A stretch of DNA of 34,210 nt from Myxococcales bacterium (GTDB taxonomy: Bacteria > Myxococcota_A > UBA9160 > UBA4427): positions 59,877 through 94,086 of the forward strand of contig DUCT01000147.1 of the NCBI GenBank assembly GCA_012959665.1, read 5' to 3'. Below, one piece after another: positions 1,015 to 33,079 of this stretch. Numbering within the stretch: the stretch's first letter is position 1; every line of letters starts with the position of its first letter. Under the pieces are notes generated by a model, which saw only the letters and a list, made by a program, of their open reading frames with translations, ran no database searches and was not told where the DNA came from. The position numbers and the translations under genes are program-made.

Positions 1015-1153
1015 GGTCCATCTACAACTGCCTGGTCCATCTACAACTGCCTGGTCCATCTACAACCGCCTGATCCATCTGCAACCGCTTGGTCCATCTA
1101 CAACCGCTTGGTCCATCTACAACCGCAACCGCGTGGTCCATCCACGACCGCGG
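1015..1153. repeat. Tandem array, 19-bp unit, about 7 copies
   Basis: The unit is close to GGTCCATCTACAACTGCCT. Copies begin at 1015, 1034, 1053, 1072, 1091 and 1110, and a diverged copy follows at about 1135 after a 6-bp insertion. The first two or three copies are nearly identical, and drift increases to the right. There are no unique spacers, so this is not a CRISPR array. Short open frames cross it on both strands, but they only reflect the repeat and show no conserved protein. Confidence 0.93.
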
Positions 1154-1166
1154 CGTGGCCAAACCG

Positions 1167-1236
1167 GCGTTGGCACACGGGCGTTGGCACATCGGCGTTG
1201 GCACACGGGCGTTGGCACATGGGCGTTGGTGTATCA
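1167..1236. repeat. Tandem array, 14-bp unit, 4-5 copies
   Basis: The unit GCGTTGGCACACGG occurs at 1167, 1181, 1195 and 1209, alternating between CACGG-like and CATCG/CATGG-like ends. A decayed fifth copy starts at 1223. The alternation suggests a 28-bp higher-order duplication. The unit is unrelated in sequence to the 19-bp array just before it. Confidence 0.9.
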
Positions 1237-1354
1237 GGGCCCATGCGGCCCTCTGGACGCATCCGCCCAAAGCAGCGGGCGTTCAGAAACCCCGAGGAAC
1301 CCGGGGGACAGCGTTGCCCGTTCTTGATGGCGGTGCCGTGCTGATGCGCTGCTC

Positions 1355-1549
1355 AATAGCGCTGGTGAATAGCGCTGGTGAATGGCGCTGGTGAATAGCG
1401 CTGGTGAATGGCGCTGGTGAATGGCGCTGGTGAATAGCGCTGGTGAATGGCGCTGCTAGAGAGCGCTGGGGAATAGCGCTCATGAACAGCGCCCATGAAC
1501 ACCGGTCGTGAACAGCGCTCACGGACCACGCTGCTAAACAGCCCTGCTC
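1355..1549. repeat. Tandem array, 13-bp unit, 15 copies in register
   Basis: The unit AATAGCGCTGGTG (variant AATGGCGCTGGTG) repeats in exact 13-bp register for 195 bp. The first seven copies are near-perfect. The last seven or eight diverge but keep an AGCGC-like core, for example AATAGCGCTCATG and AACAGCGCCCATG. Most A-variant units contain the palindrome AGCGCT. The array ends 16 bp from the rpmB stop codon, so it lies between convergent transcription units (rpsN-rpmE2 and rpmB). Confidence 0.93.
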
Positions 1550-9482: not shown

Positions 9483-10187
9483 ATGGAAATCATCAGTTCG
9501 ATGGCGGGGTGGGAGTTCCTTCTGCGGTACACGCACTTTCTTGCGGGTGTCTGCTGGATCGGGGTGCTCTGGTACTTCAATTTCATTCAGACGCCTTTCT
9601 TTGGCACCGAGCTCGGTGGCCAGGCCAAGAGTGCCGTCACCCGGGGCCTTGTCCCCAACGCACTCTGGTGGTTTCGCTGGGGCGCAATGTTCACCTTCCT
9701 GACCGGTTGGGCGATGGTGATGATGAAACTTCATAGCGGCGTCGCCATGGCGGATCCGTATATGACAAAAATTCTCACAGGCGGGCTAATGGGCACGTTC
9801 ATGTGGGCCAATGTCTGGTTCGTCATCTGGCCCGCGCAGCAAGTTGTGATCGCCAATGCCGAGAATGTCGCCGGGGGAGGCGAGCCCAACCCCGAAGCCG
9901 CCGGCCGCGCCGGCCGGGCGGGCATGGCGTCTCGCACCAATACCCTGCTGTCCATTCCCATGCTTTTCTTCATGGGAAGCGCCAGCCATCTGCCCAGTTT
10001 CCTGACCGGAAACAACGATCTCGTTTATTGGCTGGTCGCGGGTGCGATCATCCTCTTCGTCGAGGCTCAGGCACTGATTGGCCCGGGGACCGCAACCCAG
10101 AAACCGCTGACCACGGTCTCCGGAACAATCCACGCAGGGCTAGCCCTCACCGTGCTTCTCTACGTGGTCGGCGTCCTGATCAACTGA
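9483..10187 (+). CDS. Integral membrane protein, PuuD N-terminal (Urate_ox_N) family
   Basis: The 234-residue protein has about six predicted membrane helices: near 9-31, 61-84, 98-128, 148-168, 180-205 and 212-234. The RYTHFLAGVCWIG opening, the FVIWPAQQVV stretch and the SRTNTLLSIPMLFFMGSASH segment resemble the N-terminal membrane domain of PuuD, the urate dehydrogenase that carries a fused C-terminal cytochrome c. Here no cytochrome is fused. Conserved His residues in helix 1, after helix 4 and in helix 6 could bind heme. The start at 9483 follows a strong GGAGGAGA. It faces a c-type cytochrome gene 100 bp downstream on the other strand. Urate activity is not proven; many family members have unknown substrates. 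Confidence 0.8.
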   Translation: MEIISSMAGWEFLLRYTHFLAGVCWIGVLWYFNFIQTPFFGTELGGQAKSAVTRGLVPNALWWFRWGAMFTFLTGWAMVMMKLHSGVAMADPYMTKILTGGLMGTFMWANVWFVIWPAQQVVIANAENVAGGGEPNPEAAGRAGRAGMASRTNTLLSIPMLFFMGSASHLPSFLTGNNDLVYWLVAGAIILFVEAQALIGPGTATQKPLTTVSGTIHAGLALTVLLYVVGVLIN

Positions 10188-10884: not shown

Positions 10885-11814
10885 ATGAAGCAATTCATGG
10901 AAGCCCAGGAACTGGCGAGGGATCGCCGATTCAAACGAACCAAGAGCCAAAACACCCTGCTTCGGTCCCTGCCCGACGACGTGGAAGAAATTGTCCGCAT
11001 CTTCGAGTCCATTGCCGAAAAGATTCGGGAGCGGGTCGCGGAAACCTCCCTTGAGGCGGTCTACGACGACCTGGGTCCGGGCTTCCAGTTTCTAACAGCT
11101 TCCGGGGGCCGCCAGTCCAAAAACGAACGCACCCCGCTGCAACTGCGCCTTCAACTCCACGGAATTTTCGTCGGCGAAATCCAAGCCCTGGAGGCCGCCG
11201 GGCGAACCCTCTGGGATTTTCCCGATTCACCCTGGGCTTTCACCAAGGATATGGCCAGGCAATGCTGGGACGAAGCGCGCCACGTCCAAGCCTATGAAAA
11301 ATTGATTCAGCACGCTGGCGGCGAAGTGGGCGAGTTTCCCGAGACCACTTTTCTGTTCGAAGCATCCTGCCACACCGATCCGGCTCTTCGCCTGACCGGC
11401 GTCAATCGTTGCCTCGAGGGGCTGGCGTGCGATGCCTTTCGCTCGCTCATTGACTACGGGAAGAACGTGGGAGACGAGATCATCGCCCAGGCGGTGGACT
11501 TCGTGCTGGCCGATGAACTGACCCATGTCCGTTTCGGGAGTGAGTGGGTCAAGGAATTCACTCGGGATGACCCGGAACGGGCGAAGCGGGCCCGGGAGTT
11601 CCAGCGCGAGACCGAACGGGCCTTTTCCTTCGGTTCCCAACGCGAACTGGCCCGGGAAGAACGAAGAGAAGCGGGCTTCAGCGAAGAAGAAATGGATGAA
11701 ATCGAAGCCCTCTCCTCCGACGCCCCCAAACGGGAAACCCTTGTCCGTGCGGCCGAGATCCTGCGGGACCGTCACCGTGCGCGCAAAAAGGGTGAGGCCG
11801 TGGCCCCCCTCTAG
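10885..11814 (+). CDS. DUF455 ferritin-like diiron protein
   Basis: The 309-residue, mostly helical protein has the spaced ligands of a ferritin-like four-helix diiron site: E98 in GIFVGEIQALE, E130xxH133 in WDEARHVQAYE, E178 in NRCLEGLACD, and E211xxH214 in DELTHVRFG. The surrounding sequence matches the DUF455 family, whose reaction is not established. The ATG at 10885 follows GGCGGAGGA with about 10 nt spacing; an in-frame extension upstream overlaps the divergent promoter region and is not conserved. The C-terminus is rich in Glu, Arg and Lys and probably helical. It is convergent with the Cys-cluster protein, 39 bp apart. Confidence 0.86.
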   Translation: MKQFMEAQELARDRRFKRTKSQNTLLRSLPDDVEEIVRIFESIAEKIRERVAETSLEAVYDDLGPGFQFLTASGGRQSKNERTPLQLRLQLHGIFVGEIQALEAAGRTLWDFPDSPWAFTKDMARQCWDEARHVQAYEKLIQHAGGEVGEFPETTFLFEASCHTDPALRLTGVNRCLEGLACDAFRSLIDYGKNVGDEIIAQAVDFVLADELTHVRFGSEWVKEFTRDDPERAKRAREFQRETERAFSFGSQRELAREERREAGFSEEEMDEIEALSSDAPKRETLVRAAEILRDRHRARKKGEAVAPL

Positions 11815-18225: not shown

Positions 18226-18448
18226 CGCCCTGCATTGTCTCATGTGACCTATTGTTAAACCAGCAAAAACTGCTGGGACCTGCAGTCGATGGCCGAAAGA
18301 GCAAGTCCGGTCACTACAGAACCGCGCGAAAGGCACTCGAGGGGGCCTGGCGCTGTCCGGGGAATTATCTCGAAACAGGTGACCCCATCCTCCCATCCGA
18401 AAAATCCCCTCCTATTTTACCCTCCGAAATAAAGAGACGAGGAATTCG

Positions 18449-18500
18449 GCCAGAATTTTCGGCCAGAACTTTCACCCAGAACTTTCGCCCAGAACTTTGA
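18449..18500. repeat. Tandem array, 13-bp unit, 4 copies
   Basis: GCCAGAATTTTCG, GCCAGAACTTTCA, CCCAGAACTTTCG and CCCAGAACTTTGA follow one another in exact 13-bp register. The array lies in the 342-bp divergent gap between the protease (start 18225) and the dioxygenase (start 18568), 67 bp before the latter. The rest of the gap is pyrimidine-rich (CCTCCCATCC-type runs at about 18388-18430), with no clear gene. Confidence 0.88.
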
Positions 18501-31633: not shown

Positions 31634-31691
31634 AAGCCGAATCGGGGAATCCAAAAAACCCCAAAGAATGCGAGGGGCCAGGCGTGGTGTT

Positions 31692-31845
31692 ACAAGAGCG
31701 GTTTTACAAGAGCGCCTTTACAAGAGCGGTTTTACAAGAGCGCCTTTGCAGGAGCGCCTTTGCAGGAGCAGTTCTACAGGAGCGCCTTTGCACGAGCGCC
31801 TCTGCAGCAGTGCCTTTGCAGTAGTGCCTTTGCAAGAATGGCTTC
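31692..31845. repeat. Tandem array, 14-bp unit, 11 copies
   Basis: The unit ACAAGAGCGCCTTT (variant ACAAGAGCGGTTTT) runs for 154 bp in exact 14-bp register. The first four copies alternate GGTTTT and GCCTTT ends. Later copies change ACAAG to GCAGG and then decay to GCAGTAGTGCCTTT and GCAAGAATGGCTTC. It lies between the TetR and SDR genes. The AGCGC core resembles that of the 13-bp array at 1355. Confidence 0.93.
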
Positions 31846-32062: not shown

Positions 32063-33028
32063 GTGGATAAATTCGAGGGAAAAATAGCTGTGGTCACCGG
32101 GGGCGGGTCCGGGATGGGGCGCGAGTTGTGCCTGCAACTCGCCACCGAGGGCTGCCATGTCGCGCTCTGCGATGTCTCTGCGGAGTCCCTGGAAGGGACC
32201 CGGGCTCTCTGCACTCGGGCCGCGCCAGCGGGAACCCGGATCAGCACCCACGAAGCCGATGTCTCCGACGAGGCCCAAGTCATCGGCTTCCGGGATGCAG
32301 TGGTCGACGTGCACGAAACCGATCATATCCATCTCGTGTTCAACAATGCGGGCATCGGGGCCGGAGGGAGTTTTCTCCTCGACGACCGGGAGGCGTGGGA
32401 GAAAACGTTCGCGGTCTGCTGGGACGGCGTTTACTACTGCTCCCGCGCGTTCGTCCCCCTCCTGGTGGCCAGCCCCGAGGGCCACCTAGTCAACACAAGC
32501 AGCGTCAATGGATTCTGGGCGTCCCTCGGACCCCAGTCCGCCCACAGCGCGTATAGCAGCGCGAAGTTCGCAGTGAAGGGATTCACCGAAGCGCTGATCA
32601 ACGACTTTCGAATCAATGCTCCCCATGTTGGGGTTTCCCTGGTCATGCCCGGACATATCGGCACCTCAATCGTGATCAACTCGGGCCGGATTCTTGGCCG
32701 CGAGCCCAAGGAACTGCCCGATGACCAACTGGCCGAAATTCGAGATCGCATGGAACAGGCGGGATTGGAACTCGAGGGGGCGACAAACGACGAGATTCGA
32801 AATGCCCTCCAGGCAAGGGCCGAGAGCTTTCGTGATGATGCCCCCATGACTGCGGCCGATGCAGCCACCGTCATCCTCGACGGAGTCCGCAACGGGAATT
32901 GGCGGATATTGGTGGGCCAGGACGCCGTCACCCTGGATCGGATGGTCCGAGAAAACCCCGACCAAGCCTACGAGATCGCGTTCATGGAGAAGTTTCTCGC
33001 ACAGTCAGGCTGGTCCATTGGCGGTTGA
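32063..33028 (+). CDS. Short-chain dehydrogenase/reductase
   Basis: The 321-residue classical SDR has the nucleotide-binding motif TGGGSGMG (12-19), NNAG (94-97), catalytic Ser in NTSSVNG (near 146) and the YxxxK pair Y164 and K168. An Asp after the second strand (CDVSAES, about 37) favours NAD(H). The C-terminal part (200-321) is longer than usual and helical, probably shaping the substrate pocket for a bulky alcohol or ketone such as a steroid or long-chain substrate. The GTG start at 32063 follows GAGGAGG by about 7 nt. It is divergent from TetR across the repeat region. Confidence 0.92.
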   Translation: MDKFEGKIAVVTGGGSGMGRELCLQLATEGCHVALCDVSAESLEGTRALCTRAAPAGTRISTHEADVSDEAQVIGFRDAVVDVHETDHIHLVFNNAGIGAGGSFLLDDREAWEKTFAVCWDGVYYCSRAFVPLLVASPEGHLVNTSSVNGFWASLGPQSAHSAYSSAKFAVKGFTEALINDFRINAPHVGVSLVMPGHIGTSIVINSGRILGREPKELPDDQLAEIRDRMEQAGLELEGATNDEIRNALQARAESFRDDAPMTAADAATVILDGVRNGNWRILVGQDAVTLDRMVRENPDQAYEIAFMEKFLAQSGWSIGG

Positions 33029-33079
33029 CTCTTCTTTCGGCTCCAGCCGCCCTGCCCGATTCCTCGGCCAAAGACCCCG

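What the first reader, a model, noticed from the sequence alone, without database searches (positions are those of the whole stretch)
1015..1549. Three unrelated tandem arrays between two ribosomal protein units
The gap between rpmE2 and rpmB holds arrays of 19, 14 and 13 bp with different unit sequences, placed head to tail. The 15-copy 13-bp array is in perfect register. The same kind of object, with yet other units, recurs at 18449 and 31692. Intergenic minisatellites with a new unit each time suggest a local expansion process such as slippage or template switching rather than a copied element. Copy number changes could alter termination or spacing between the convergent genes.
Basis: seen in the sequence. 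Interest (0 to 1): 0.62.

Follow-up and report, generated by a model that had tools for sequence, protein, structure and literature searches.

The report
Newborn minisatellites between genes, genus-wide
Short repeats of 13, 14 and 19 letters between two ribosomal protein genes are real and belong to roughly two hundred such arrays in this uncultured bacterium; each seems to have grown on the spot from local sequence, which makes this genus a natural case for studying how repeat DNA is born.

Summary
The 556-bp convergent gap between rpmE2/L31 (629-1009, +) and rpmB/L28 (1566-1862, -) carries three direct-repeat arrays: 19 bp x6, 14 bp x5 and 13 bp x15, the last in unbroken register. Similar arrays lie at 18445-18498 and 31686-31834. 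They are part of a genus-wide trait: intergenic arrays occur at 36 per 100 kb of spacer in five species of the genus, 6 in other genera of the family, 0 in other families of the order, 0 in an E. coli control. Gene order is conserved among the five species, yet all three array loci of the window are species-specific in unit and mostly in position. Several arrays run into a gene's stop codon with the conserved gene end as first copy, which points to birth in place by tandem duplication rather than a copied element. Arrays avoid divergent (promoter) gaps, consistent with tolerance downstream of genes. Units are not fully unrelated: they resemble each other slightly more than chance. A termination or regulatory role is not supported. 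Closest known case: tandem repeats of archaeal Borg elements. New variant of a known kind (minisatellite).

The parts
1015..1128 (.). Array 1: 19-bp unit GGTCCATCTACAACCGCCT, 6 copies, starting 6 bases after the L31 stop codon
   Evidence: score 182; copies 16-19 of 19 identical
1152..1235 (.). Array 2: 14-bp unit GGCGTTGGCACACG, about 5 copies plus degenerate ends, with a 28-bp higher-order (two-unit) pattern
1354..1548 (.). Array 3: 13-bp unit GAATAGCGCTGGT, 15 copies in unbroken register; identity falls from 13/13 to 8/13 towards L28
629..1009 (+). rpmE2 (L31), left convergent neighbour, with an acidic C-terminal tail
   Evidence: Pfam PF01197
1566..1862 (-). rpmB (L28), right convergent neighbour
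   Evidence: Pfam PF00830
2042..2089 (-). Three degenerate copies of the DUF3127 gene end (CCGCCTTTCTAA, CCGCCTTCTAA, CCCCATTTCTAG); the same gene end carries full arrays with other units in three sister species
   Evidence: gene 2075-2431 PF11325
18445..18498 (.). 13-bp array TTCGCCCAGAACT, 4.2 copies, in the divergent gap subtilase/TauD-type dioxygenase; absent from the same gap in four sister species
31686..31834 (.). 14-bp array (GAGCGCCTTTGCAG type; 28- and 42-bp higher-order patterns) in the divergent gap TetR/SDR; absent from that gap in G001 and G003

Best explanation
These are minisatellites born in place. A stretch of about 13-15 bp (up to about 19-22) of local spacer, often including the last codons and stop codon of the neighbouring gene, is tandemly duplicated, and the array then grows and turns over by slipped-strand or template-switch replication, sometimes in blocks of two or three units (28- and 42-bp higher-order patterns). 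The birth rate is raised in this genus. Arrays persist mainly downstream of genes, because a duplication across or after a stop codon leaves the protein and the promoter intact, while one in a promoter is selected against. The arrays themselves are most likely near-neutral. Shown here: reality, genus-level enrichment, species-specific position and unit, gene-end seeding in several cases, avoidance of divergent gaps, higher-order patterns. Inferred: the slippage/template-switch step, the raised rate, the neutrality.
For: (1) Intergenic arrays at TRF score >=80: 56 in 154 kb of spacer of five genus members, 5 in 78 kb of other genera of the family, 0 in 31 kb of other families of the order; rate ratio 7.9, p 1e-8; without the discovery genome 6.1, p 1e-4; E. 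coli 0 in 33 kb by the same pipeline, whose gene caller recovers 38 of 39 annotated stops. (2) Gene order of the window is conserved in G001-G004, but the TetR/SDR and subtilase/TauD arrays have no counterpart and the L31-L28 gap has other arrays (12 bp in G002; 14 bp in G004) or none (G001 and G003, with an ordinary hairpin instead). (3) At the DUF3127 3' end the conserved ending CCGCCTTTTTAG is the first copy of arrays with a different unit in G001 (14 bp), G003 (15 bp) and G002 (14 bp, then a 13-bp array), and of three degenerate copies in the window; other arrays repeat their gene's own end and stop (L138, L045, L054, L140, L129), and for L138, L045 and L054 that end aligns to within 0-4 bases of the stop in sister species. 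(4) Arrays per 100 kb: convergent 128, tandem 71, divergent 19, p 5e-6. (5) Arrays inside genes mostly have periods divisible by 3, intergenic ones peak at 13-15.
Against: Units of different loci are somewhat more alike than random spacer, and a GCGCYTNTSAA tandem occurs in arrays of several species and two other genera, so not every array need be independent. Contact of arrays with stop codons is no more frequent than random placement in these short gaps (16 against 13.1 +/- 2.8); only contact with start codons is low (3 against 8.1 +/- 2.5), so gene-end seeding is shown for cases, not as a rule. No sequencing reads, hence no direct view of copy-number change.
Confidence: 0.72

Rival explanations
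1. A dispersed satellite family: one ancestral 13-15 bp array (core [GC]CGCYTNTSAA) spread through the genus and each copy drifted and was homogenised locally, so that units now look different.
For: Unit pairs from different contigs score >=5 in 57 cases against 33 +/- 6 for random spacer 14-mers (maximum of 100 draws 48). The motif in tandem is found in G000, G002, G004, G009 and G037, against one hit of the reversed control. AAGCGC is not enriched in array-free spacer.
Against: Most units have no relative; gene ends conserved in sisters are the first copies of several arrays; sister species carry different units in the same gap, or none, between conserved flanks; no terminal repeats or target-site marks were seen.
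Confidence: 0.14
2. Functional arrays: repeated binding sites or terminators acting at gene ends (for example rut-like sites or protein-binding iterons), so that copy number tunes termination or expression.
For: Concentration at gene 3' ends; the L31-L28 gap of G001 and G003 has a hairpin terminator that the window lacks.
Against: No strand bias of C over G on the transcript (52% of 44 tandem-gap arrays); RNA folding no better than shuffles; terminator-like hairpins are rare with or without arrays (0 of 43 against 7 of 258 gaps); no conserved unit; no Rfam match.
Confidence: 0.1
3. Assembly or binning artefact of a metagenome-assembled genome.
For: The genome is a fragmented MAG, and contigs of G003 break inside a 19-bp array.
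Against: Copies differ by point changes in an ordered way; the trait recurs in five separately assembled MAGs (four with accessions) and not in other MAGs of the same order; in-gene arrays mostly keep the reading frame. Copy numbers may still be collapsed.
Confidence: 0.03

Closest known systems
Tandem repeats of archaeal Borg elements (Schoelmerich et al. 2023, PMC9879509)
   Same: Many arrays scattered over a replicon, each with its own unit; arise independently; rarely conserved in alignable relatives; [quoted passage not shown] flanking partial repeats taken as seeds; in-gene units divisible by three.
   Different: Borgs are extrachromosomal elements of archaea with perfect, A-rich units, about half in genes; here they are on what appears to be a bacterial chromosome, imperfect, not A-rich, period peak 13-15, mostly intergenic and downstream of genes.
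Bacterial minisatellites / VNTR loci
   Same: Direct repeats of 10-60 bp, imperfect, with higher-order blocks, presumed slippage origin (general knowledge).
   Different: Density (36 per 100 kb of spacer at score >=80 against 0 in the E. coli sample), and a lineage-wide supply of new units.
TAACTGA intergenic direct repeats of Beggiatoaceae (MacGregor 2015, PMC4679880)
   Same: Many intergenic direct-repeat sets in a marine bacterium, some near ribosomal protein genes.
   Different: One fixed heptamer at 169 sites, mostly just upstream of start codons; here units differ and promoter gaps are avoided.
MIRU elements of Mycobacterium (from memory, not tested)
   Same: Intergenic repeats that touch stop codons and vary in copy number.
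   Different: One related unit family of about 50-100 bp copied to many loci, not new units of 13-15 bp.

Membership tests
Minisatellite / VNTR | Head-to-tail copies of a 10-60 bp unit | tested here: met
Minisatellite / VNTR | Copy number varies between individuals of the species (VNTR proper) | not testable with these tools
   no second strain and no reads; between species the arrays differ or are absent
Borg-type tandem repeats | Each locus has its own unit, formed after divergence of close relatives | tested here: met
   qualified by the weak unit resemblance
Borg-type tandem repeats | Perfect repeat units | tested here: not met
   units vary, 8-13 of 13 and 16-19 of 19 identical
Dispersed repeat family (REP, MIRU, TAACTGA type) | The same unit at many loci of the genome | tested here: not met
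   the whole gap finds one relative in its genome (75% over 104 bp); units differ
CRISPR array | Repeats separated by unique spacers | tested here: not met
   13-19 bp copies are head to tail without spacers
Rho-dependent (rut) terminator | C over G excess on the transcript strand | tested here: not met
   52% of 44 tandem-gap arrays C over G
Intrinsic terminator | G+C-rich hairpin followed by T run at the 3' end | tested here: not met
   no site in 1010-1565; present in G001 and G003 (sequence)

The most novel reading that the evidence does not exclude
This genus has an active, genetically determined process that keeps making new 13-15 bp tandem arrays from the sequence at gene 3' ends (for example a replication or repair defect acting where transcription and replication collide after translation stops), so that spacer DNA is rebuilt at each speciation.
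Probability: 0.25. Interest if true: 0.7.

Novelty: new variant of a known kind. Interest (0 to 1): 0.5.

Why it matters
How minisatellites are born is hard to catch, because most genomes hold a few old loci. Here one bacterial genus holds an estimated two hundred per genome, in syntenic gaps where arrayed and empty sites of sister species can be aligned, and several with the seed still recognisable as a gene end. The narrow unit size of 13-15 bp and the genus-level boundary give handles on mechanism. If functionless, the arrays are a clean read-out of slippage; if functional, they would change how spacers downstream of genes are read.

Tried and rejected
Rho-utilisation sites with a spacing matched to Rho: no strand bias. 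Intrinsic terminator or structured RNA. Strict seeding at stop codons: contacts are not more frequent than random placement; stop codons in units are more frequent than in random spacer (56% against 36%) but about equal on sense and antisense (23 and 20 of 44), so not a stop-codon signal. Terminator replacement by arrays: numbers too small. Loss of mismatch repair: MutS1 is found in all 30 genomes and ExoVII in 29 of 30, genus g1 included. RecJ is found in none of 30 genomes, but that is order-wide and so cannot by itself explain a genus-specific trait. Reverse transcriptase: none in G000, G001, G002 or G004. First null for unit similarity was spoiled by runs of N and replaced.

Full report
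What was checked. The gap 1010-1565 lies between rpmE2/L31 (629-1009, +, PF01197) and rpmB/L28 (1566-1862, -, PF00830), with S14 upstream. TRF and a unit-by-unit reading confirm three arrays: 19 bp (6 copies, 1015-1128), 14 bp (about 5 copies, 1152-1235) and 13 bp (15 copies in unbroken register, 1354-1548). Shuffled spacer gives none. Arrays of the same kind are at 18445-18498 and 31686-31834.

Where the window comes from. It is part of a 3.57-Mb metagenome-assembled genome in 268 contigs. The organism is thus an uncultured relative within what is labelled Myxococcota; the other named relatives are environmental MAGs.

A genus-wide trait. About 640 kb of this genome, 75-220 kb of each sister species and samples of 29 more distant genomes were run through one pipeline. 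At TRF score >=80, spacer arrays number 41, 8, 17, 37 and 49 per 100 kb of spacer in the five genus members (36 pooled), 6 in other genera of the family and 0 in other families of the order. The contrast holds without the discovery genome (p 1e-4), and an E. coli K-12 control of 200 kb has none. Extrapolated, the genome holds on the order of 200. In-gene arrays mostly have periods divisible by three; spacer arrays peak at 13-15 bp.

Turnover. Gene order across the window is the same in the sister species, but arrays are not. The subtilase/TauD array is absent from the same gap in all four; the TetR/SDR array is absent in G001 and G003 (the gap is cut off in G002 and G004). The L31-L28 gap has a 12-bp array in G002, 14-bp arrays in G004, and a plain hairpin without arrays in G001 and G003. 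Conversely G004 and G003 have arrays in gaps that are empty in the window.

Birth in place. The DUF3127 gene next to L28 ends in CCGCCTTTNTAA/TAG/TGA (one species CCGCCCTTTTAG) in all five species. In G001 this ending is the first copy of a 14-bp array, in G003 of a 15-bp array, in G002 of a 14-bp array followed by a 13-bp one, and in the window of three degenerate copies; the spacer further on is conserved between G001 and G003. Other arrays repeat their own gene's end and stop: GAGCGGGTCTAA (L138), TCAAGGGGCGCTGA (L045), GTTAGCCCGGTGA (L054), CCGTACCACTAA (L140), GACTAG (L129). For L138, L045 and L054 the gene end aligns to within 0-4 bases of the stop in sister species, so the seed is probably older than the array. 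This favours tandem duplication in place. It is not a rule: contacts with stop codons are no more common than random placement gives, while contacts with start codons are rarer.

Placement. Arrays per 100 kb are 128 in convergent, 71 in tandem and 19 in divergent gaps (p 5e-6). The simplest reading is selection against arrays in promoters. Density is also higher within 120 bp of a 3' end than further away in tandem gaps, which leaves room for a link to transcription ends.

How unrelated are the units? Mostly different, but pairs from different contigs resemble each other more than random spacer 14-mers (57 against 33 +/- 6 at score 5; 27 against 12 +/- 4 at score 6). One flavour, GCGCYTNTSAA in tandem, recurs in several species and two other genera, and its core is not enriched in array-free spacer. 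Either some arrays share ancestry, or the process prefers such sequence. This is the main open point.

Function. No terminator, no excess RNA structure, no rut-like strand bias, no Rfam family. A role in termination is not supported. The higher-order patterns (28 bp in array 2; 28 and 42 bp at 31686) show block duplication. Array 3 decays towards L28.

Mechanism candidates. MutS1 and ExoVII are present; RecJ is not detected in any of 30 genomes of the order although the control genomes ring; few have any DHH protein. Loss of RecJ may be a permissive background (general knowledge: single-strand exonucleases limit slipped misalignment in E. coli), but it is not specific to the genus. No reverse transcriptase is found in four of the five species.

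Known comparisons. The Borg tandem repeats are the nearest described phenomenon: independent birth, own unit per locus, start at ORF ends, flanking partial copies. They differ in replicon, perfection, A-richness and in-gene share. The TAACTGA repeats of Beggiatoaceae are the opposite case of one unit at many loci. A limited literature search found no report of such arrays in Myxococcota; subscription journals are not covered.

Noticed in passing
30 genomes of the order, G000-G018 and G030-G040: RecJ (TIGR00644) is detected in none of 30 genomes while 13 of 14 control genomes give it; DHH-domain proteins pass the cut-off in only 7 of 30. An order-wide loss of a near-universal exonuclease would be notable.
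   Followed up: partly
window 32966-33075: This 110-bp stretch at the 3' end of the SDR gene is 95% identical to G001:C171:10519-10628 and 98% to the end of G001:C45, although the SDR orthologue lies on G001:C14 at about 76% identity: a recent transfer, or a misjoin in one of the MAGs.
   Followed up: partly
L092:1-96 and L094:17-130 (G003 contigs C75 and C86): Two contigs end in the same 19-bp array and flank genes that are neighbours in the window (9483-10187 and 10885-11814), so assemblies break at these arrays and true copy numbers are probably larger.
   Followed up: partly
L090:1646-1789, L096:14858-14880: The C-terminal tail of L31 in G002 and G004 is itself built from in-frame 9-, 12- and 36-bp repeats; the tail beyond residue about 82 is poorly conserved in the genus.
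   Followed up: no
G000 sample: Scaffolds of this MAG hold many N runs (16,617 bases in the sampled stretches), unlike those of G001-G003.
   Followed up: no
L012 near 389-430 (G016): Another genus of the family shows an incipient two-copy repeat right after the DUF3127 stop codon (TAGTCATTCCACC TAGCCATTCCAGA).
   Followed up: no
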